Source of the DNA: Hymenobacter edaphi
Lineage (GTDB): Bacteria > Bacteroidota > Bacteroidia > Cytophagales > Hymenobacteraceae
Length of the DNA: 64,000 nt
Direction of reading: 5' to 3'
NCBI RefSeq assembly: GCF_003258365.1
Contig: NZ_QHKM01000001.1
Span: 744,001-808,000 of the forward strand
A model generated the notes under the pieces. It saw only the letters and a program-made list of their open reading frames with translations. It did not search any database and had not been told where the DNA came from. Positions within the stretch are counted from its first letter, which is position 1; each line of letters begins with the position of its first letter. Made by a program: the position numbers and the translations under genes. Below, piece by piece: positions 19,366 through 29,240 of the stretch.

Positions 19366-19725
19366 ATGAAAGACGTCTTACCCGACCCCGTCACTTTCCG
19401 CGTCAACGGCCGCCTCTGGATTGAAGGCCCCGCGGACCGTTTCCTCGGCATCGGGCGGCTGGAGCTGCTGCAGCGTATTCAGCAGCTGGGCTCCATTTCC
19501 AAGGCCGCGAAGGCCATGAACATGTCCTACAAGCGGGCCTGGGAGCTGGTCAGCTCGATGAACACCCAGGCGCGGGTGCCGCTGGTGAGCACCCAAACCG
19601 GCGGGCAGCGCGGCGGCGGGGCTCACCTAACGGCCGCCGGCGCGCAGGCCGTGGCCGATTTTGAGGCGCTGCAGCTTCGCTTTCAAGCGTTTGTAGAAGC
19701 CGAAACGGCCCGCCTGCACGGCTGA
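19366..19725 (+). CDS. ModE-like winged-helix transcriptional regulator
   Basis: A 119-residue protein matching the N-terminal DNA-binding domain of ModE/LysR-type winged-helix proteins: LGIGRLELLQRIQQLGSISK, then AAKAMNMSYKRAWELVSSMN as the helix-turn-helix, and a wing with GGQRGGGAHLTAAG. The C-terminal molybdate-binding (TOBE) domains of full ModE are absent, so any metal sensing must occur differently. It lies 134 bp upstream of, and codirectional with, a TonB-dependent receptor gene, its likely target. Stand-alone ModE-like DNA-binding domains are common in Bacteroidota. Confidence 0.85.
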   Translation: MKDVLPDPVTFRVNGRLWIEGPADRFLGIGRLELLQRIQQLGSISKAAKAMNMSYKRAWELVSSMNTQARVPLVSTQTGGQRGGGAHLTAAGAQAVADFEALQLRFQAFVEAETARLHG

Positions 19726-19859
19726 CGTAACCCCGGGGGCGCAGTGTCGTTATGTTTGGCCGGGAATAGCGCCTCATTGCGGATGCGAACGAAGTGCCCT
19801 TTCCCGTCATAGCGGGCGGCTGTAGGCTGCGCCGCCGACTACTTCACCCGGGTTACTAC

Positions 19860-22523
19860 ATGAGCGAATTGCTACGCTGGTTGCGGCCCGCCGCCGCGCT
19901 TTCCTGCCTGACGGCCTGGCCACTTGGCGCGGCTACGGCCCAAACCGCGCCGACGGCCAGTGCCGCCGCTACGGCCGATACGACCCGCCACCTGCCTATA
20001 GCCTTGAGCGAAGTGGTGGTAACGGCCTCGCGGGTGGAGGAAAGCATCCTTCAGTCGCCGGTGACGGTGGAGAAGCTGGGCGCGCGGGCCCTGCGCCTGA
20101 CGCCGGCGCCCTCGTTTTTCGAGGCCATCGAAGGGGTGAAGGGCGTGCAGGTGCTCACGCCCAGCCTGGGCTTCAAGGTCATCAACGCCCGCGGCTTCGC
20201 CAATACCACCAACGTGCGCTTCGCCCAGCTGGTCGACGGCGTCGACAACCAGGCGCCGCATATCGGCGGGCCGATTGGCAACGCTTTGGGCCCGAGCGAC
20301 CTGGATGTTGCGGCGGTGGAAATCGTGCCGGGCACGGCGGCGGCGCTCTACGGGCTGAACGCCATCAACGGGCTGGCCAACTTCACGACCCGCAGCCCGT
20401 TCAGCTCCGAAGGCCTGAGCGCGCAGCAAAAAACCGGCGTCAACCACCTGAATGACCCCAGCAGCGCGGCCCGGCTGTTCAGCGAAACCAGCTTGCGCTA
20501 CGCCCGGGTGCTGAGTTCGAAATGGGCGTTTAAAGTCAACGGCACCTACACCCGCGGCTACGACTGGGTGGCAGGCGACCCGACGGACCTGTACCCGCAG
20601 GGCAATGCCTCGGCCGGGCTGCCCGGCGGGCCCTCGAACCCGGCCTACGACCCGGTGAGCGGCTACGGCAACGAGTCGTCGAACCGCTCCACGTTCACCC
20701 TGGGCGGCAAGGACTACACCGTGGCCCGCACCGGCTACCGCGAGCTGGACGTGGTGGACTACCGCCTGCGCAACCTCAAGGCCGACGCCGCCCTGCACTT
20801 CCGCCCCGCGGCCCGCACCGAGCTGGCCTACACCTACCGCGTGGCCGGCCTCGACAACGTGTACCAACGCTCCAACCGCTTCCGGCTGGCGGGCTACACC
20901 CTGCAGCAGCACGCCCTGGCGCTGACCACCCCGCTGGTGCAGGCCCGGGCCTACTTCACCCACGAAAACACCGGCCGCAGCTACAACCTGCGCTCCGCCG
21001 CCGAAAACCTGGACCGCAGCTTCAAGTCGGACGCGCAGTGGAAAACCGACTATACCGCCGCCTGGAACGCCGCCGTGCAGGCCGGGCAGTCGGTCGGGCA
21101 GGCCCACGCCGCGGCCCGCCTGGCCGCCGATGCCGGCCGCCTGCCGCCCGGCACGTCGCAGTTTGAGGCCAAGCTGCGGGAGCTGGCCGACATCAACAAC
21201 TGGGACCAGGGCGCCGCGCTGCGGGTAAAGGCCGACCTGATCCACGCCGAAACTCAGGTAGATGTGGCCCAGGCCCTGCGCGGCGGCCCCTGGGCCGCCC
21301 TGCCCGCCCGCTACGACCTGCGCGCCGGCCTCGACCACCGCACCTACGTCATCGTGCCCGACGGCAACTACTTCATCAACCCCCGGCCGGGCCGCGACCA
21401 GTTCAGCCCGCTCACCTACGGCAAGACCGGCGGCTTCGTGCAGGCCGGCGCCCGGCTCTGGCGCGAGCGGCTGCGCCTCACCGCCACCCTGCGCGCCGAC
21501 AAAAACGACTACTTCGCGGTGCGGCTGAACCCGCGGCTGACGGCGGTCCTGTCGCCCACCACGCGGCACCACTTCCGGCTGAGCTACCAGAGCGGCTACC
21601 GGTTTCCGAGTTTGTTCGAGGGCTTCTCGAACGTGAACAGCGGGCAGGTCAAGCGCATTGGCGGGCTGCGGGTGATGTCCGACGGCGTGTTCGAGCGCAG
21701 CTACCTGCGCAGCAGCATCGACCAGTTCAACGCCGCCGTGACGGCCGAAGTCAACGCCAACACCAGCGGCGCGCCGGCGGCGGACAAGCGCCGCCTCGCC
21801 ATCGAGCACAACCAGGGCCTGCTGCGCAAGAATCCCTACACCTACCTGCGGCCCGAGCACATCCGCTCCCTGGAGCTGGGCTACAAGGCGGCCCTGCTGC
21901 CCGGCGGCCGCCTGCTGCTCGACGTGGATTTCTACTACAACCGCTACCAGGACTTTATTGCCCAGGTGGAAGCCTACGTGCCGCTCGATGCCGCCGGCCA
22001 GCCACTCAGCCCCAGCGCCGACCCCAATACCGTGGCCACCGCCCTGAATGCCCGCGCCACCCAGGCCCGCTACCGCCTCTGGACCAACTCCCAGAGCCGC
22101 GTGAGCAACTACGGCGGCTCCCTGGGCCTGCGCTACGAGCTGCCCGGCGGCCTGCTGGCCGGGGCCAACGCCACCTACGCCCGCCTGCGCCGCACCGAGT
22201 CGGGCGACGGGCTGGAAGACGGCTTCAACACCCCGCGCTGGATCTACAACCTTAGCCTGGGCCACGAGCACGCCTTCCGCGGCCTGGGCTTCGGGCTGAA
22301 CTACCGCTGGCAGCAGCGCTACTATTCGCAGACCTTCCTGGTCACCGGCTACGTGCCGGCCTACGGCACCCTCGATGCGCAGCTAAGCTACACCGTGCCC
22401 AAGCCCGACCTGCGCTTCAAGCTCGGCGCCACCAACGTGCTGAACGATTACTACGTGTCCTTTCTCGGCGGCCCGAGCGTGGGCGGGCTGTACTACCTTA
22501 CGGTGACGTACGGGCTGAACTGA
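19860..22523 (+). CDS. TonB-dependent outer-membrane receptor
   Basis: An 887-residue receptor. A signal peptide ends near ATAQ (about residue 30); LSEVVVTASRVEESI (about 47-61) resembles the TonB box / plug start; the plug ends with VEIVPGTAAALYGLNAINGLANF (about 155-178, as two adjoining segments); and a 22-strand type barrel ends in the aromatic-rich YYLTVTYGLN. It lacks the carboxypeptidase-like domain found in the two receptors further on. The start is the ATG at 19860 (MSELLRWLRP); an open frame upstream has no suitable ATG. The ModE-like regulator before it hints at an oxyanion or metal substrate such as molybdate, which is inference. A lipoprotein gene overlaps its stop codon. Confidence 0.9.
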   Translation: MSELLRWLRPAAALSCLTAWPLGAATAQTAPTASAAATADTTRHLPIALSEVVVTASRVEESILQSPVTVEKLGARALRLTPAPSFFEAIEGVKGVQVLTPSLGFKVINARGFANTTNVRFAQLVDGVDNQAPHIGGPIGNALGPSDLDVAAVEIVPGTAAALYGLNAINGLANFTTRSPFSSEGLSAQQKTGVNHLNDPSSAARLFSETSLRYARVLSSKWAFKVNGTYTRGYDWVAGDPTDLYPQGNASAGLPGGPSNPAYDPVSGYGNESSNRSTFTLGGKDYTVARTGYRELDVVDYRLRNLKADAALHFRPAARTELAYTYRVAGLDNVYQRSNRFRLAGYTLQQHALALTTPLVQARAYFTHENTGRSYNLRSAAENLDRSFKSDAQWKTDYTAAWNAAVQAGQSVGQAHAAARLAADAGRLPPGTSQFEAKLRELADINNWDQGAALRVKADLIHAETQVDVAQALRGGPWAALPARYDLRAGLDHRTYVIVPDGNYFINPRPGRDQFSPLTYGKTGGFVQAGARLWRERLRLTATLRADKNDYFAVRLNPRLTAVLSPTTRHHFRLSYQSGYRFPSLFEGFSNVNSGQVKRIGGLRVMSDGVFERSYLRSSIDQFNAAVTAEVNANTSGAPAADKRRLAIEHNQGLLRKNPYTYLRPEHIRSLELGYKAALLPGGRLLLDVDFYYNRYQDFIAQVEAYVPLDAAGQPLSPSADPNTVATALNARATQARYRLWTNSQSRVSNYGGSLGLRYELPGGLLAGANATYARLRRTESGDGLEDGFNTPRWIYNLSLGHEHAFRGLGFGLNYRWQQRYYSQTFLVTGYVPAYGTLDAQLSYTVPKPDLRFKLGATNVLNDYYVSFLGGPSVGGLYYLTVTYGLN

Positions 22524-23193: not shown

Positions 23194-25764
23194 TTAGCCG
23201 TTGCTGCCGCCGCCCTGCTTCTGGTCGTCGTTCTGAATGCTCTTCTTCGGGCGGCTCTGGTTGTCCATCTTGCCGAAGCGGTAGAAGAAGCTCACCCGGA
23301 TCTGCCGGTTGTAGAAGTAGGAGTTGTTTTCGTAGTCGAAGCTGGGCGTGGCCAGGTCGTTGCGAAAGGCCAGGCGGGCGTTGAAGGGGTTGATAACGGC
23401 CACCACCACGTTGGCTTTCTTGTCCCAGAACTCCTTTTTGGCCCCCAGGCTGTAGATGCGGTAGCCCGAGTTGCGGCCCTGCAGCGTCACCTGCCGCGAG
23501 TTGGCGAAGGCGAAGAACTGCGCGCTCCAGCCCTTCTCGAACTGCCACGACGAGTTCAGGTTCAGGTTGAACATGCCCCCGCTGTTCGACAGCCCCAGCG
23601 CCGGGCTGCTCACCTGCCGCCAGTAGAAGTTGGCGTTGCCGCTCAGGCTCCACTTTTCCGTCAGCTTGGTCGAGCCGAAGGCCGAGAGGCCGTAGTTGGC
23701 GTTGCGGGCCAGGTTGCGGAAGGTCGTGTAGAGGATGCGGGTCGTGTCGGTGGTGGCCAGCAGCTCGGTGCCGGGCACCAGCCGCGCCACGCTCTCGATG
23801 GCGTTGTTGGTCTGCCGCCAGTAGCCCGAAAACGTCACCGAGCTTTTCTTGATAAAGGTGGTGTAGGTCAGCTCGTAGGCGTCGGTCAGCTCCGCGTTCA
23901 GGTTGGGGTTGCCCGACGACACGTTGCGCCGGTCGGCGGTGTTGATGTAGGGGTTCAGGTACCAGATGCCCGGCCGCTGAATGCGCCGCGAGTAGCTCAG
24001 CTTCAGGGTGTGGTCGGGCGTCAGGGCCCAGGCGGCCATCAGGTTGGGCGCCAGGTTGGTGTAGTTGGTGCGCAGCACCGTGCCGCTGCTGCGAAACTCC
24101 CCGCTGATGCGCGTGTGCTCCAGCCGGGCGCCGCCCTTGAAGGTCCACTTCTTGCCCACGCCGAAGCCGTAGGAGGCGTAGCCCGCGTACACGTTCTGGT
24201 CGTAGCCGAACTCGTTGGAGCGGGCCGGCACCGGGCGGTAGCTGCGCCCGTCCAGGCTGTCGGCGTCGATGCGGTAGTCGCTGTCGACGTGGCGCAGGAT
24301 GGTTTTGGCGCCCGTTTCCAGGGTCTGGGTGCTGTCGAGCGGCTGCACGTAGTCGGCCTGCAGGGTGATTTCGCGGTTGCGCGAGTCGTTGCGGCTCTGC
24401 TCGCGGTAGTCGGTCAGCTCCCCGCGCTGCTGGTCCAGCTGGTAGCGCTGCCGGCCCAGGTTCAGGCTGTAGAGGCCGAGCACGCTCAGCTCCTGCTTGG
24501 GCCGGGCCAGCTGCTTGGTGTAGCCCAGGTTCACGTCCACGTTGCCGTTGGCCTCGCGCGTGTCGATGTCGCGGTTGTAGGCGTCCAGAAACAGCGGCCG
24601 CAGCGCTCCGGCCTCGGTGCGAAACAGCCGGTAGTCGGTGTACTGCTGCCGGTCGTTGAGGTAGCCGCGGTAGTTGCCCTGCACGCCCAGACTCAGCACG
24701 TCCTTCGGGCTCAGGTCGTAGTCCAGGCCCAGGTTGCCCCACAGGCCCCAGCCCGAGTTGCGGAAGCGCCCGGTTTGCAGCAGCTGGCTCTGGGTGGTGT
24801 CGGTGAGGTAGTCGGTGCGGCGGGCTGCGCTGCGGGCGATGTTGAAGAACGGGTTGGTGCCCATTCCCGAGTTCAGCCCCAGCTTGCCGCGGCGCTGGTT
24901 GAAGTTGCCACCTACGTAGGCGTTGCGGTTGCTCACGCCGGCCCCGATGTTGCCGCTCTTGCCCTCCAGGTTGTTCTTTTTCAGAATGATGTTGACCACC
25001 CCGGCCGTACCCTCCGCGTCGTACTTGGCCGAGGGCGCGGTAATGACCTCCACCGACTTGATCTGGTCGGCCGGAATCTGCTTGAGCGCCTCGGCCAGGT
25101 TGGTGGCCAGCAGGGTGGAGGGCTTGCCGTTCACCAGCACCCGAATGTTCGAGGAGCCGCGCAGCTGCAGGTTGCCGTCGAGGTCCACGGTGAGCAGCGG
25201 GGCCTTCTGCAGCACGTCGGCGGCGGTGCCGCCGCTGTTGGTCAGGTCCTTGTCGGCGTTGTACACGAGGCGGTCCACCTTGCTTTCCACCAGGGCCCGC
25301 TCGCCCGTCACCTGCACCTCGCCCAGCTGGGTGGCGGTGGCCGCCAGCAGCACCGCGGGCAGCTCCAGCACCGCCCGTGCGGCCGTCACCGACACCGGCA
25401 CCCGCTGCGGCTGGTAGCCCACGAAGCTCACCACCAGCGTGTAATCGCCCACCGGCACGTTGCCGAGCACGAAGGCGCCTTTCTCGTCGCAGGCGCCGGC
25501 CAGCACCGCCTTGTCGCTGCCTGCCGCCAGCAGGGCCACCGTGGCAAACTCCACCGGCTGCTTGCTGGCCGCGTTCTGCACCACCCCGCTGATGCGGCCC
25601 GCGACGTTGGCCGCCGGGTTGCTGCCGGCAGCGGGGGCGGTTTGGGCCGGCGCCGGCGCCGCGGCCGCCAGCAGCAGGCCCAGGGCCACGGCGCCGGCCG
25701 TGCCGGTACCGGCAAGGGCCGGCCGGAGCGTCGCGGCCGGGGAAAGGGAAGTAGCTTTTTTCAT
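23194..25764 (-). CDS. Outer-membrane beta-barrel receptor with carboxypeptidase-regulatory-like domain
   Basis: An 856-residue protein of the TonB-receptor-related OMP family. In order: signal peptide (cleavage near PAPAQ, about residue 41), carboxypeptidase-D-regulatory-like domain (about 55-135, ISGVVQNAASKQPVEFATV), plug (about 145-255, with VLVNGKPSTLLATNLAEALK and AEGTAGVVNIILKKN), then a long barrel ending in QIRVSFFYRFGK. The C-terminal tail is hydrophilic. The start ATG is 25762-25764 (MKKATSLSP). A perfect palindrome TACGAAAATTTTCGTA lies 22 bp upstream of the ATG. Substrate unknown. It is a distant relative of the gene upstream and shares its putative operator. Confidence 0.9.
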   Translation of the reverse strand: MKKATSLSPAATLRPALAGTGTAGAVALGLLLAAAAPAPAQTAPAAGSNPAANVAGRISGVVQNAASKQPVEFATVALLAAGSDKAVLAGACDEKGAFVLGNVPVGDYTLVVSFVGYQPQRVPVSVTAARAVLELPAVLLAATATQLGEVQVTGERALVESKVDRLVYNADKDLTNSGGTAADVLQKAPLLTVDLDGNLQLRGSSNIRVLVNGKPSTLLATNLAEALKQIPADQIKSVEVITAPSAKYDAEGTAGVVNIILKKNNLEGKSGNIGAGVSNRNAYVGGNFNQRRGKLGLNSGMGTNPFFNIARSAARRTDYLTDTTQSQLLQTGRFRNSGWGLWGNLGLDYDLSPKDVLSLGVQGNYRGYLNDRQQYTDYRLFRTEAGALRPLFLDAYNRDIDTREANGNVDVNLGYTKQLARPKQELSVLGLYSLNLGRQRYQLDQQRGELTDYREQSRNDSRNREITLQADYVQPLDSTQTLETGAKTILRHVDSDYRIDADSLDGRSYRPVPARSNEFGYDQNVYAGYASYGFGVGKKWTFKGGARLEHTRISGEFRSSGTVLRTNYTNLAPNLMAAWALTPDHTLKLSYSRRIQRPGIWYLNPYINTADRRNVSSGNPNLNAELTDAYELTYTTFIKKSSVTFSGYWRQTNNAIESVARLVPGTELLATTDTTRILYTTFRNLARNANYGLSAFGSTKLTEKWSLSGNANFYWRQVSSPALGLSNSGGMFNLNLNSSWQFEKGWSAQFFAFANSRQVTLQGRNSGYRIYSLGAKKEFWDKKANVVVAVINPFNARLAFRNDLATPSFDYENNSYFYNRQIRVSFFYRFGKMDNQSRPKKSIQNDDQKQGGGSNG

Positions 25765-25786: not shown

Positions 25787-25802
25787 TACGAAAATTTTCG
25801 TA
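25787..25802. promoter_or_regulatory. Palindromic operator candidate, TACGAA-N4-TTCGTA type
   Basis: TACGAAAATTTTCGTA, a perfect 16-bp palindrome 22 bp upstream of the receptor ATG at 25764. It shares both half sites with the palindromes at 28671 and 28694. Confidence 0.65.
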
Positions 25803-25958
25803 TAACCTGGTCGACGGGTCGCCCGTGGACACTGACCACCAGCGAAAAGGTTACAAGACGGGGAGGGGGAAATCAGCGGAGCCTGCCAGTGGTGGGCAAG
25901 GGCTCAACGCGCATTCCGGGGCAAAGACCACGCAGCATTACCGCCGTTGCATATTGCC

Positions 25959-25974
25959 AACGAAAAATTTCGTA
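25959..25974. promoter_or_regulatory. Second operator candidate between the two receptor genes
   Basis: AACGAAAAATTTCGTA differs from the TACGAA-N4-TTCGTA consensus only in the first base. It lies in the 352-bp AT-rich spacer 25765-26116, which otherwise contains no gene. Confidence 0.55.
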
Positions 25975-26116
25975 TTGGATTTAAGATATTGATTTTCAGT
26001 TAAAAATATCGTGAATGGGCGGAGGGTTAAACATGACGCGGCAGCCAGCGGCGCAGCCGAGCCGCAGGCCAGCATCGACCTGCGGCTCGGCTGCGCCTTG
26101 CCGGAGCCGACGCCCG

Positions 26117-28588
26117 CTAGTTGCCGCCGGCGCGCCGCTTTTCGTCCTCGGCCCCGCCGCCCCGGCGCTTGCTCGGCGCCACCTTGTCGTTGCCAAAGCG
26201 GTAGTTCAACGACAGCGTGACCACCCGCGACTCGAAGCGCTGGAAAAACCGCTCCCCGTAGTTGTCAAAGGCCACCGTCGAGCGGGTTTTGTTGGTGAAG
26301 AAGATGTCCGTTGCGTTCAGCTTCACCGTGGCCCGGTTGTGCCACAGCCCCTTCTGCACCCCAAACGACACCTGGCCCTGCCCGCGGCCCACGAAGTAGG
26401 CGTAGCGGTTGGGCGAGTCGTAGTTGGCGTTCAGGTCGGCCTTCCAGTCGTGGCCCAGCACGAAGGTGCTGTTGCTGCTCAGGTTGTAGGCCGGGCGGCC
26501 GGCGTTGAGGGTGGTGCCGGCCAGCTTGCCCTGAAAGCGGCTGTAGTAGAGCACCGCGTTGTTGTACACGCTCCACCACTTGGTAATTTCCACCGGCGCG
26601 GTCAGCGTCAGGGCGTAGTTGAACTGCCGGTCCAGGTTTTCGGTGGTCGAAACCACGGTGCGGCCGCCTTCCGGGGCGGGCTGCACCGTGCCCACGATGG
26701 GGTTGTTGGTCACGGCGTAGCTCAGCCCCACGCTGTACTTCTGCCGGAAGGTGTGGGTCAGCTCCAGGTTGTAGCTGGTTTGCGGGCGCAGGTCCTGGTT
26801 GCCGGCGCCGTAAGTCGTGGGGTTGATGTAGCTGCGGAAGGGGTTCAGCTGCCCGTAGGAAGGCCGGTCGATGCGGCGGCTTAGCGAGAGGCTGGTCTCG
26901 TTCTTGTCGGAGAAGGTGTGCTTCACGGCCGCCGAAGGAAACAGCTGGAAGTAGTGCCGGTCGAAGCGGCCCGAGTCGGCTTCCGGCCGGCCGATGGCGT
27001 TGGTTTGCTCGCCGCGCAGGCCGGCCTGCAGCGTCCACTGGGGCAGGGTCTGGCTCACGCTCACGTAGCCGGCCAGGATGTTTTCGTCGTAGCGGAAGCG
27101 GTTGGAGCGGCTCGGGTCGCGCACCAGTTCGTCGACGGCGCCGGGCCGGACGGGTACTTTGAACAGCAAGTCGTTGTCCGACAGCACCCAGCTGACTTTG
27201 CTGCCCGCCTCCAACCGGCTGGTCTTGCTCAGCGGCCGGGTGTAATCGGCCTTCACCGACTGAATAGTCAGGTCGTTGCGCTGGTCGCTGGTCAGGCGGT
27301 CCAGGGTTTCCGCGGGCAGGGTGTAACGGGTATCGAGCTGCTGGCCGCGGCGCGAGTCGTAGCGGGCGTAGTCGGCATCGGCGCTCAACTCGTGCTGGCC
27401 CAGGGAGTCCTGGAAGGTGTGCCGGAAGTTGGCGTTCAGTGAGTAGTTGGGCAGGTCGCCGTCGCGCAGGTTCACCGACTGGTAACGCTCGGTCACGTTG
27501 CCGTTGGGCGCGTAGGAAACGACGTCGTTGCTGCCCCGGCTGTCGGTTTGCAGGGCCAGCCCGTTGGCCACCACGCCCAGCACGGTGCGCTCGGAGAGGT
27601 AGTAATCAAGGCCCGCTTTCCAGTTATGGGAGCGGCCGTGGCCCACGCCCTCGTTGTCCAGAAACGAGCGGCCCGTGAGCATCCGCACCCCGTCCTGATT
27701 TACAAAAAAGTCGCGGTTGATGGTCAGCGCGTTCCAGTTGCGGCGGTCGGCGAAGGTGTAGGTGCCGAACACGTTCAGGTTCTTGCGCCGGTGGTTCAGC
27801 GACAGGCCCGAGGTAAACTTGCCGTAGCGCCCGTAGCCGTAGCTGAGGTTGGCGGAGCCGTTGGTGCCCAGCTTCTGGTCCTTTTTCAGGTTGATGGCAA
27901 TGATGCCCGCGCCGCCCTGCGCGTCGTACTTGGCCGGCGGGTTGGTTATCAGCTCGATGTTCTTCACCTGGTCGGCCGGCAGGTTGCGCAGGTAGTCGGC
28001 CAGCTCGGTGCCCGTCATCGGCTGCCGCTTGCCGTCGATGAGCACCAGCAGCCCCTGCCGCCCGCGCAGCGCCAGGTTGTCGCTGCCGTCCACCGTCACG
28101 CCCGGCGAGCGGCGCAGCACGTCCAGCGAGGTATTGCCGGCCGACAGCGGCGAGTTTTCCACGTTGACCACCGTGCGGTCGGCCAGGCGCTCAAACTGCG
28201 GCCGCGTGCCCGTCACCTGCACTTCCTTGAGCTGGGTGGCCGCGCTGGCCGCCAGCAGCAGCGCCGGCACGCTCACTTTCTCGCCGCTCACACCAAACGG
28301 CCGCGACCATTGCCGCTCGAAGCCCACCTGCGAAGCCGACACGAGGTATTGCCCCGCCGGCGCCTGCTCGAAAGCAAACAGCCCCTTGTCGTCACTAAAC
28401 TCGGTTTTGACGACGGTCGAGTCCTGGGCCCGGTGCAGCGTCACGGTGGCGTAGTCGATGACGGCGCCGGCTGAGGAGCGCACGGCGCCGCTCACGGTGG
28501 CCGCGCTTTGGGCGTAGCTCACCTGCGCCAGCCCGAGGCCGGAGAGCAGCAGCAAGGTGGCGCGGGAGGAAGAGTAGGAGGTTTTCAT
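26117..28588 (-). CDS. Outer-membrane beta-barrel receptor with carboxypeptidase-regulatory-like domain
   Basis: An 823-residue protein of the same OMP family as the gene downstream. In order: signal peptide (cleavage near SYAQ, residue 27), regulatory-like Ig domain (about 30-110, VSGAVRSSAGAVIDYATVTL), plug (about 120-235, with VLIDGKRQPMTGTELADYLR and DAQGGAGIIAINLKKD), and a long barrel ending RVVTLSLNYRFGND with a basic tail. The start ATG is 28586-28588 (MKTSYSSSR). Upstream is a near-consensus promoter with two palindromes around its -7 element, and beyond that the MarR gene. Substrate unknown; the setting suggests an inducible uptake or efflux-linked function. Confidence 0.9.
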   Translation of the reverse strand: MKTSYSSSRATLLLLSGLGLAQVSYAQSAATVSGAVRSSAGAVIDYATVTLHRAQDSTVVKTEFSDDKGLFAFEQAPAGQYLVSASQVGFERQWSRPFGVSGEKVSVPALLLAASAATQLKEVQVTGTRPQFERLADRTVVNVENSPLSAGNTSLDVLRRSPGVTVDGSDNLALRGRQGLLVLIDGKRQPMTGTELADYLRNLPADQVKNIELITNPPAKYDAQGGAGIIAINLKKDQKLGTNGSANLSYGYGRYGKFTSGLSLNHRRKNLNVFGTYTFADRRNWNALTINRDFFVNQDGVRMLTGRSFLDNEGVGHGRSHNWKAGLDYYLSERTVLGVVANGLALQTDSRGSNDVVSYAPNGNVTERYQSVNLRDGDLPNYSLNANFRHTFQDSLGQHELSADADYARYDSRRGQQLDTRYTLPAETLDRLTSDQRNDLTIQSVKADYTRPLSKTSRLEAGSKVSWVLSDNDLLFKVPVRPGAVDELVRDPSRSNRFRYDENILAGYVSVSQTLPQWTLQAGLRGEQTNAIGRPEADSGRFDRHYFQLFPSAAVKHTFSDKNETSLSLSRRIDRPSYGQLNPFRSYINPTTYGAGNQDLRPQTSYNLELTHTFRQKYSVGLSYAVTNNPIVGTVQPAPEGGRTVVSTTENLDRQFNYALTLTAPVEITKWWSVYNNAVLYYSRFQGKLAGTTLNAGRPAYNLSSNSTFVLGHDWKADLNANYDSPNRYAYFVGRGQGQVSFGVQKGLWHNRATVKLNATDIFFTNKTRSTVAFDNYGERFFQRFESRVVTLSLNYRFGNDKVAPSKRRGGGAEDEKRRAGGN

Positions 28589-28670
28589 AGCAAAGAAAGG
28601 CTGGAACAGGAAAGGCAGGAAGGAGGGCAGCACCGGCCGCGCACGAGAGCCGGCCGGGAAGAAGTTGTTT

Positions 28671-28686
28671 TACGAATAGCTTCGTA
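28671..28686. promoter_or_regulatory. Operator candidate at the receptor transcription start
   Basis: TACGAATAGCTTCGTA, a palindrome with a 4-bp centre just downstream of the -7 element (28688-28695), so it should cover the transcription start of the minus-strand receptor gene. Confidence 0.7.
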
Positions 28687-28687
28687 G

Positions 28688-28717
28688 CAAACGTACGAAT
28701 GATTTCGTATTATCAAA
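28688..28717 (-). promoter_or_regulatory. Bacteroidota promoter of the receptor gene at 28588
   Basis: Minus strand: -33 TTTG (28717-28714), 18-bp spacer, -7 TACGTTTG (28695-28688). This is the best promoter in the window. The 5' leader would be about 90 nt. Confidence 0.75.
28694..28709. promoter_or_regulatory. Operator candidate inside the promoter spacer
   Basis: TACGAATGATTTCGTA, a palindrome placed between the -33 and -7 elements and overlapping the first two bases of the -7. Its centre is 23 bp from that of the 28671 site, about two helical turns. A weaker third copy with only the right half intact lies at 28711-28726. Confidence 0.7.
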
Positions 28718-28759
28718 ATTTTCGACGAAAGTCGGCGGCGGCAAGGGCGGGAGCGGGCC

Positions 28760-29191
28760 TTAAGCCGGGGGCGCGCAGTTCAGTGCAATGCGGTCGAGCA
28801 GGGGGCGCAGCACGGCCAGTTCTTCCTCGGAAATGCCCGCCAGGGCCTTGGTGCGGTTTTGCAGGACGATGGGCTGCACCGCCGCCAGGATGCGGTGGCC
28901 GGCCTCGGTCACGCGCAGCTGGGTGCGGCGGCCGTCGTGGGGCAGGGGGACGGCCGAGAGCAGGCCGCGCCGGGTGAGCAGGGCCAGCATGCGCGCCACC
29001 GAGGCCTGGTCCTTGAACACGCGCTCGGCAATGTCGTGCTGGGTCAGGTCGTCGTGCTCCAGCAGCACCCGCAGCACCAGCCACTGGTCGATGGTGATGT
29101 CGAGGCCGGCGCGGTCGATGGTGGCCTGGGCCATGCGCCGGTAGCTGCGGATGGCTTTGTCGAGGGCGTAAAAAACGATGGAAGAGAGCAT
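28760..29191 (-). CDS. MarR-family transcriptional regulator
   Basis: A 143-residue winged-helix regulator. Helices about 8-45 (DKAIRSYRRMAQATIDRAGL), recognition region LTQHDIAERVFKDQASVARM (about 49-68), wing LPHDGRRTQLRVTEAG (about 83-98) and C-terminal dimerisation helices. MarR proteins usually repress their own operon and neighbours until a small ligand binds. The gene lies upstream of the two receptor genes on the same strand, and its promoter has a palindrome in the spacer, consistent with autoregulation. The start is the ATG at 29189-29191. Confidence 0.92.
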   Translation of the reverse strand: MLSSIVFYALDKAIRSYRRMAQATIDRAGLDITIDQWLVLRVLLEHDDLTQHDIAERVFKDQASVARMLALLTRRGLLSAVPLPHDGRRTQLRVTEAGHRILAAVQPIVLQNRTKALAGISEEELAVLRPLLDRIALNCAPPA

Positions 29192-29209
29192 GCGGCGCGA
29201 GATTGGGGT

Positions 29210-29240
29210 AAAGACTATGATATATCATAAAGGTTGCAAA
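29210..29240 (-). promoter_or_regulatory. marR promoter with palindromic operator
   Basis: Minus strand: -33 TTTG (29240-29237), 19-bp spacer, -7-like TAGTCTTT (29217-29210). A perfect 14-bp palindrome TATGATATATCATA (29216-29229) fills the spacer. Its half site (TATGAT) resembles the TACGAA half site of the receptor operators but with a 2-bp rather than 4-bp centre. Confidence 0.6.

What the first reader, a model, noticed from the sequence alone, without database searches (positions are those of the whole stretch)
25787..29240. Shared TACGAA-N4-TTCGTA palindromes around the promoters of two outer-membrane receptors beside marR
Two 16-bp palindromes (28671-28686 and 28694-28709) bracket the -7 element of a near-consensus promoter (TTTG, 18 bp, TACGTTTG), one in the spacer and one over the expected start point. 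A perfect copy sits 22 bp before the second receptor gene (25787-25802) and a near copy at 25959-25974. marR lies upstream on the same strand, and its promoter spacer holds a perfect palindrome TATGATATATCATA with a similar half site (TAYGAW). The layout implies a local repressor circuit controlling two receptors of unknown substrate.
Basis: partly seen in the sequence, partly recalled or inferred. Interest (0 to 1): 0.72.

Follow-up and report, generated by a model that had tools for sequence, protein, structure and literature searches.

The report
BlaI-type switch controls outer-membrane receptors
The repeated palindrome in front of two outer-membrane receptor genes is real and conserved, but it most likely belongs to a distant BlaI/BlaR1-type repressor-protease switch, best known from penicillin resistance, rather than to the neighbouring marR gene, which appears to have a palindrome of its own.

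Summary
TACGAA-N4-TTCGTA occurs five times in the 6.04-Mb genome (reversed-pattern control 0): three in these promoters, one before a third receptor operon, one before a BlaI/MecI-family repressor gene on another contig, where two near copies complete a triple array. A BlaR1-like M56 protease gene follows. In 120 genomes of the family, motif and BlaI co-occur (both 102, neither 12, discordant 3+3). 69 of 70 blaI upstream regions examined (of 114 hits) and 80 of 80 named-genome loci carry it within one mismatch (overlapping sets). MarR hits occur in 25 of 120 genomes; 80 motif genomes have none. MarR has its own palindrome, whose single copy here precedes marR. Of 23 receptor-A genes with marR upstream, 19 carry the TACGAA pair and no MarR site; four, one clade, carry the MarR site and no TACGAA: an operator swap. 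Inferred: BlaI dimers bracket the -7 element and repress; M56 cleaves BlaI on an unknown signal. No penicillin-binding domain was detected in M56. There are no binding or expression data.

The parts
28694..28709 (.). operator 1 of receptor A (TACGAATGATTTCGTA), in the -33/-7 spacer, overlapping the TA of the -7 element
   Evidence: arms invariant in the 5 genomes of its clade, this one included
28671..28686 (.). operator 2 of receptor A (TACGAATAGCTTCGTA), just downstream of the -7 element, over the expected start point; 23 bp from operator 1
28688..28717 (-). predicted promoter of receptor A: TTTG, 18 bp, TACGTTTG
   Evidence: read from sequence; TAnnTTTr at the same place in 18 of the 22 TACGAA-bearing receptor-A promoters printed; the Bacteroidota -33/-7 consensus itself is recalled
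26117..28588 (-). receptor A: outer-membrane beta-barrel, TonB-dependent-receptor type, 823 aa
   Evidence: PF14905 E 2e-108, Plug, CarboxypepD_reg
25787..25802 (.). operator of receptor B (TACGAAAATTTTCGTA), 22 bp before its ATG
   Evidence: exact in 5 of 5 genomes of the clade, this one included
25959..25974 (.). second, one-mismatch operator of receptor B, 172 bp further upstream
   Evidence: a one-mismatch copy is present in 5 of 5 genomes of the clade, this one included
23194..25764 (-). receptor B: outer-membrane beta-barrel, TonB-dependent-receptor type, 856 aa
   Evidence: PF14905 E 9e-100, Plug, CarboxypepD_reg
29216..29229 (.). MarR's own predicted operator TATGATATATCATA, only copy in the genome with up to 1 mismatch
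28760..29191 (-). marR, winged-helix regulator, 143 aa; predicted autoregulator, not the TACGAA-binding protein
   Evidence: PF12802/PF01047

Best explanation
The palindromes are operators of a BlaI/MecI-family repressor encoded far away in the same genome (G000:C28:619592-620011), in an operon with a BlaR1-like M56 metalloprotease gene. Shown by sequence: the same palindrome, in the same position around a -33/-7 promoter, precedes blaI-M56 and receptor A; it also precedes receptor B and a third receptor operon (C11:553074); and the motif-blaI association is conserved across the family. Inferred: BlaI dimers occupy two or three adjacent sites, one in the spacer and one over the start point, and block RNA polymerase; an envelope signal received by the C-terminal part of the M56 protein activates its protease, BlaI is cleaved, and the receptors and the blaI-M56 operon are derepressed together. 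MarR autoregulates through a different palindrome; in one sister clade it appears to have taken over the receptor-A promoter.
For: Five exact sites in 6.04 Mb, control 0. Triple array over the blaI promoter. Presence over 120 genomes: both 102, motif only 3, BlaI only 3, neither 12, Fisher p 1.8e-11 uncorrected for kinship. 69 of 70 blaI upstream regions examined (of 114 BlaI hits) within 1 mismatch, 61 exact; shuffles average 0.09 of 70, highest 1. 80 of 80 named-genome blaI loci within 1 mismatch, 76 exact; 79 of 80 with M56 directly downstream. 55 exact sites in the 8 genomes of the genus, this one included: 13 before blaI-M56, 16 receptor A, 7 receptor B, 7 third receptor operon, 5 PF00144 hydrolases, 3 a protein without Pfam match, 2 an S41 peptidase, 2 not assigned. 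Two extra operons in G005 run motif, blaI, M56, receptor-A-like gene. Palindrome arms are invariant in five clade genomes while N4 centres vary and flanks largely diverge. 14 of 14 receptor-A-like paralogue promoters that I chose lack the motif (one of them, G095, is also among the 30 loci).
Against: No binding, footprint or expression data. BlaI is encoded on another contig, so the link is by motif and co-occurrence only. Genomes are related, so counts are not independent. The 80 named loci were found with peptide patterns that include the GYTTTL segment, so they are pre-selected for a similar recognition segment. In G005 three BlaI copies share the motif, so there the responsible copy is unclear. 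18 of 30 receptor-B loci (all at 46-57% identity) and 8 of 30 receptor-A loci lack the motif. The M56 tail is modelled poorly (mean pLDDT 63.5), its signal is unknown, and cleavage of BlaI is assumed from the staphylococcal precedent.
Confidence: 0.88

Rival explanations
1. One reading: the adjacent MarR binds the TACGAA palindromes and represses both receptors as a local circuit.
For: marR lies upstream of receptor A on the same strand in 23 of 30 receptor-A loci; all 25 genomes with a MarR hit also have the motif.
Against: 80 motif genomes have no MarR hit; marR's own promoter carries a different palindrome; 4 MarR-adjacent receptor promoters have that palindrome and no TACGAA; 3 receptor promoters have the TACGAA pair without marR upstream; the motif sits before blaI in four genera where MarR was not found.
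Confidence: 0.04
2. Dual control: BlaI through TACGAA, and MarR also acts on the receptors in this genome through weaker sites, readthrough from marR, or an indirect route.
For: marR and receptor A are syntenic and co-oriented; in G079 the receptor-A promoter region holds the TACGAA pair and two MarR cores; four sister genomes have a MarR site at receptor A.
Against: In this genome the only ATGAYATRTCAT copy is before marR; no MarR palindrome within 1 mismatch in any of the 19 TACGAA-bearing receptor-A promoters that have marR upstream.
Confidence: 0.12
3. A different, unidentified regulator co-inherited with blaI binds TACGAA, and blaI-M56 is merely another target.
For: No binding data exclude it.
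Against: The motif is found before blaI in Hymenobacter, Pontibacter, Rufibacter and MAGs labelled as other Bacteroidota families, as expected for autoregulation; divergent BlaI paralogues (50-56% identity) have altered palindromes and an altered putative recognition-helix segment; the genome's second BlaI has a different palindrome in its promoter.
Confidence: 0.05

Closest known systems
BlaI-BlaR1 / MecI-MecR1 of Staphylococcus aureus and Bacillus licheniformis
   Same: Repressor of PF03965 encoded beside an M56 metalloprotease; dyad operators over its own promoter; predicted autoregulation with distal targets; the model's six best PDB matches are S. aureus BlaR1 chains (8exs, 8exq, 8exp, 8ext, 8exr; E 2e-6 to 8e-4, low TM-scores over the whole model). 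S. aureus BlaR1 cleaves BlaI directly (PMC9834060, passages read).
   Different: Operator is TACGAA-N4-TTCGTA, not the TACA/TGTA type (PMC7253601, passages read); no penicillin-binding domain detected in the M56 protein; targets in the window are outer-membrane receptors, not blaZ or mecA.
[quoted passage not shown]
   Same: BlaI with BlaR1, self-regulation, two inverted-repeat pairs per target arranged for four protomers, very small regulons (three and one operons).
   Different: Inverted GTCTAT repeats five nucleotides apart for BlaI_0696; the authors link the regulons to a beta-lactam response; no outer membrane in that organism (recalled).
CopY/CopR copper repressors (PMC7253601, passages read)
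   Same: Homologous repressor family; the refined operator is also 16 bases and E. hirae CopY binds two palindromic regions upstream of its operon.
   Different: Responds to metal through a C-terminal Cys-X-Cys motif instead of proteolysis; operator RNYKACANNYGTMRNY.
MarR-family autorepressors
   Same: The window's MarR has a palindrome in its own promoter that is unique in the genome, typical of the family (recalled).
   Different: It does not explain the TACGAA sites.

Membership tests
BlaI/MecI repressor family | PF03965 match above the curated cut-off | tested here: met
   85.1 bits against cut-off 22.6; PDB sequence matches include BlaI and MecI
BlaI/MecI repressor family | Encoded next to an M56 (BlaR1-type) protease | tested here: met
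   PF05569 101.5 bits against cut-off 31, gene directly downstream; 79 of 80 named loci
BlaI/MecI repressor family | Dyad operators at its own promoter | tested here: met
   three sites in G000; 69 of 70 loci examined within 1 mismatch
BlaI/MecI repressor family | TACA/TGTA-type operator | tested here: not met
   consensus from 176 sites (collected at up to 2 mismatches) is TACGAA-N4-TTCGTA; operators vary within the family
BlaR1 (M56) sensor-protease | HExxH zinc-protease motif | tested here: met
   HELAH at residues 221-225, HExxH in 13 of 13 aligned proteins; model matches BlaR1 structures
BlaR1 (M56) sensor-protease | C-terminal penicillin-binding sensor domain | tested here: not met
   Pfam found only M56 and M48 in 869 aa at E up to 0.001; the tail is a predicted long helix plus two small repeats
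BlaR1 (M56) sensor-protease | Cleaves BlaI upon signal | not testable with these tools
   needs biochemistry
TonB-dependent receptors (receptors A and B) | Plug and beta-barrel domains | tested here: met
   PF07715 and PF14905 above cut-off for both
MarR regulator acting on TACGAA | Cognate operator matches the receptor palindromes | tested here: not met
   the MarR-linked palindrome is ATGAYATRTCAT-like; by sequence only, no binding test

The most novel reading that the evidence does not exclude
A BlaI-M56 switch widespread in Bacteroidota, using TACGAA-N4-TTCGTA, senses a non-beta-lactam envelope cue through a new type of M56 tail and resets the set of outer-membrane receptors and periplasmic hydrolases. 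At one orthologous receptor promoter, control was handed from BlaI to MarR in a single clade, with a living intermediate (G079) that carries both operators.
Probability: 0.45. Interest if true: 0.75.

Novelty: new variant of a known kind. Interest (0 to 1): 0.6.

Why it matters
BlaI-BlaR1 is a textbook antibiotic-resistance switch of Gram-positive bacteria (recalled). Here the same architecture appears, on motif evidence, as an ordinary gene-control system of Hymenobacter and relatives whose targets in the genus examined are mostly outer-membrane receptors. The 16-bp operator makes the regulon readable in many genomes, and the motif-plus-M56 signature makes the question of what non-penicillin BlaR1-like proteins sense directly testable. 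The BlaI-to-MarR operator swap is a compact natural case of regulator replacement at one promoter.

Tried and rejected
MarR as the TACGAA-binding protein: rejected on co-occurrence, on MarR's own palindrome, and on the operator swap. Chance or coding-sequence scatter: rejected. 'All receptors of this type carry the motif': rejected; 14 of 14 paralogue promoters that I chose from the list have neither motif (one, G095, is also L323). The second BlaI of the genome (C40) as the regulator: disfavoured; its promoter has a different palindrome, TATAACTAA-N4-TTAGTTATA, and the fetched 8 kb has no TACGAA site within 1 mismatch. One-mismatch sites elsewhere in the genome (L014, L015, L016) left open, because the reversed control also gives 3. 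One search (NCBIfam) gave no name above cut-off for the receptors or MarR. In some searches one neighbour was translated in the wrong frame; one search repeated it against Pfam (VF530).

Literature: searches listed no paper that, by title and start of abstract, ties BlaI/M56 to outer-membrane receptors in Bacteroidota or gives this operator. Listings were partial where many papers matched (20 of 82, 15 of 63, 10 of 156, 10 of 1,521), and most were unrelated. I read passages of six papers only. PMC5294843 (passages) reports a BlaI-family gene up-regulated in a mutant, with no regulon in the passages seen. The library holds openly licensed papers only.

Results against: motif without a BlaI hit in 3 genomes (G090, G100, G118; counts 2, 1, 1 against reversed-control 2, 1, 0), not followed up. 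BlaI without an exact motif in 3 genomes (G048, G088, G115); all three have one-mismatch sites before blaI. L202, a 51%-identical paralogue, has only two-mismatch sites. In the MarR-core search the reversed control gave 7 hits against 16 real ones, so position, not number, is the evidence there. MarR and motif presence are weakly associated (Fisher p 0.04), as expected if both are concentrated in two genera. 18 of the 48 genomes with receptor-A hits and 5 of the 35 with receptor-B hits had no locus returned, so their promoters were not examined.
Full report
Check of the observation. The window holds 5 matches with up to 2 mismatches against 0.47 expected, and 0 of 100 shuffles reached 5. In the whole genome (6,041,327 bases, 43 contigs) there are 5 exact copies and none of the reversed control pattern.

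What the other two genomic sites are. One (C11:553074) lies 433 bp before a small carboxypeptidase-regulatory-like protein gene followed by a third receptor with PF14905 and Plug domains. The other (C28:619559) is the third of a triple array (619503, 619535, 619559; the first two with one mismatch) over the promoter of a 140-aa protein with PF03965, Penicillinase_R, 85 bits against a cut-off of 22.6. The next gene, overlapping its end, encodes an 869-aa M56 (BlaR1-type) peptidase. The architecture matches that of receptor A: TTG, a palindrome filling the spacer, the -7 element (TATGTTTG at blaI, TACGTTTG at receptor A), then a second palindrome. By exact sites this genome thus has four target units: blaI-M56 itself and three receptor loci.

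Conservation in the genus. All 8 held genomes of the genus, this one included, have 5 to 11 exact copies, control 0 in each. By exact contig length, G002, G001 and G005 correspond to Hymenobacter jeollabukensis, H. busanensis and Hymenobacter sp. CRA2, so the window is from a Hymenobacter relative; its own species was not identified. Of the 55 exact sites, 53 lie within 620 bp of the start of a reference gene (the blaI-M56 operons were scored by their M56 gene): 13 blaI-M56 operons, 16 receptor A (a pair in all 8 genomes), 7 receptor B, 7 third receptor operon, 5 serine hydrolases of PF00144, 3 a protein without a Pfam match, 2 an S41 peptidase. The other two are the rearranged third receptor locus in G001 and a site before malate:quinone oxidoreductase in G005. 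PF00144 includes many esterases and peptidases, so these need not be beta-lactamases (recalled). In G005 two further operons run motif array, blaI, M56, receptor-A-like gene, tying regulator, protease and receptor together physically.

Test of the regulator over the family. In 120 genomes of six genera, a BlaI relative (E up to 1e-20) is found in 105 and the exact motif in 105: both 102, motif only 3, BlaI only 3, neither 12 (cross-table). The BlaI-positive genomes hold 256 exact copies and the 15 negative ones 4; in total 260 exact copies against 52 of the reversed control. MarR relatives (E up to 1e-25) are in 25 of 120 genomes and 2 of 6 genera; 80 motif genomes have none, and 77 of the 80 BlaI-positive, MarR-negative genomes have the motif. 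These tests ignore kinship.

Operator before blaI. I examined 70 of the 114 BlaI hits: the 30 best, plus 40 that I chose to spread over the genera, including G048 and G088, which have no exact motif. 69 have a site with at most one mismatch within 160 bp, 61 an exact one; shuffled upstream regions averaged 0.09 of 70, highest 1. The consensus from 176 sites, collected at up to two mismatches, is T-A-C-G-A-A, four free positions, T-T-C-G-T-A, with positions 2 to 5 at 98-100%. That scan used peptide patterns including the GYTTTL segment, so it favours BlaIs with a similar recognition segment. Most of the 80 are Hymenobacter and Pontibacter; 13 loci, among them two Rufibacter and MAGs labelled Saprospiraceae, Cyclobacteriaceae, Microscillaceae, Cytophagales and (one) Candidatus Aminicenantes, were printed separately and all have sites within one mismatch. 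The two sets overlap. Paralogues with 50-56% identity carry altered palindromes (TACGAT-N4-ATCGTA; TACGAA-N4-TTCCTA) together with an altered segment in the putative recognition helix (RYTTTLK or NYTSTLK instead of GYTTTLK): suggestive co-variation only.

Receptor promoters. Of 30 receptor-A loci (one per genome, from 48 positive genomes), 22 have TACGAA sites within 400 bp, in pairs 23 or 24 bp apart; 18 of those 22 have TAnnTTTr starting at the end of the first palindrome. Of 30 receptor-B loci (from 35 positive genomes), 12 have the motif, including all 9 with at least 61% identity; the 18 without it are at 46-57%. 14 receptor-A-like paralogue promoters, chosen by me from the list, have neither motif; one of them (G095) is also among the 30. 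In five genomes of the clade, this one included, the palindrome arms are invariant while the N4 centres vary and the flanks largely diverge.

MarR. marR is indeed a conserved neighbour: it lies upstream of receptor A in 23 of 30 loci. In 21 of these 23 its own promoter carries a palindrome within two mismatches of TATGA-N4-TCATA, mostly 19 to 51 bp before the gene; two (L317, L318) have none there. In 16 chosen genomes the exact core ATGAYATRTCAT occurs 16 times, 15 of them at marR or receptor A, one elsewhere in G077 (reversed control 7). In the window's genome the single copy is before marR. Of the 23 MarR-adjacent receptor-A genes, 19 have the TACGAA pair and no MarR palindrome within one mismatch; 4 (G011, G069, G071, G073) have the MarR palindrome within one mismatch and no TACGAA site, although they have BlaI. 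In a maximum-likelihood tree of receptor A the four form one clade (97/96) beside G079 and G101 within a 100/100 group, nested among BlaI-operator receptors. G079 carries both: the TACGAA pair between two MarR cores, with its marR on another contig. Parsimony suggests a BlaI-to-MarR handover in one lineage; the tree is midpoint-rooted, so the direction is inferred.

Mechanism. Shown: operator arrays, their position on predicted promoters, co-occurrence and autoregulatory placement. Inferred: BlaI represses by occupying two or three neighbouring dyads, as proposed for C. thermocellum BlaI (PMC8457756, passages), and is removed by M56 cleavage, as shown for S. aureus BlaR1 (PMC9834060, passages). 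The M56 protein has the protease motif HELAH and BlaR1 structures as its best fold matches, but Pfam finds no penicillin-binding domain. Its tail is modelled as a low-confidence linker, a long helix (578-681) and two copies of a small repeat containing a VNGxKQ-like motif. The signal is therefore unknown and may not be a beta-lactam.

Verdict. A real, conserved regulatory system, with the regulator reassigned from the neighbour to a distant BlaI-M56 pair. It is a new variant of a known kind; the nine literature searches listed under Tried and rejected showed no earlier description among the papers they listed.

Noticed in passing
window 19366-19725 (+) and 19794-22523 (+): A short stand-alone regulator with a LysR-type HTH (PF00126), ModE-like by eye (recalled), sits directly before another TonB-dependent receptor with a heme-receptor-like NCBIfam resemblance far below cut-off: possibly a second, differently regulated receptor locus.
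   Followed up: partly
G000:C40:267998-268330 (L050): The genome's second BlaI-family gene has a different palindrome in its promoter, TATAACTAA-N4-TTAGTTATA, apparently a separate regulon.
   Followed up: partly
L012:5502-8111 and orthologues (alignment A2): The M56 tail carries two copies of an unannotated repeat (FxLxxxxLxVNGxKQ...KYRxLY-like) after a long predicted helix; a candidate new sensor module.
   Followed up: partly
L015 about 4055; also L160, L163, L175: A 278-aa protein in the window's genome (no Pfam match) has a one-mismatch site about 70 bp upstream, and similar-looking small proteins precede motif-bearing receptor-B-like genes in relatives; the resemblance was judged by eye.
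   Followed up: no
L063 7644-10136; also G087, G075, G119, G061, G046: A second receptor-A-like gene lies on the other side of marR in these six genomes; their promoters have neither motif.
   Followed up: partly
L013, L037, L041, L047, L052, L057, L061: At the third receptor operon the motif lies 429-520 bp before the first reference gene in all seven assigned loci, implying a long leader or an unannotated small gene.
   Followed up: no
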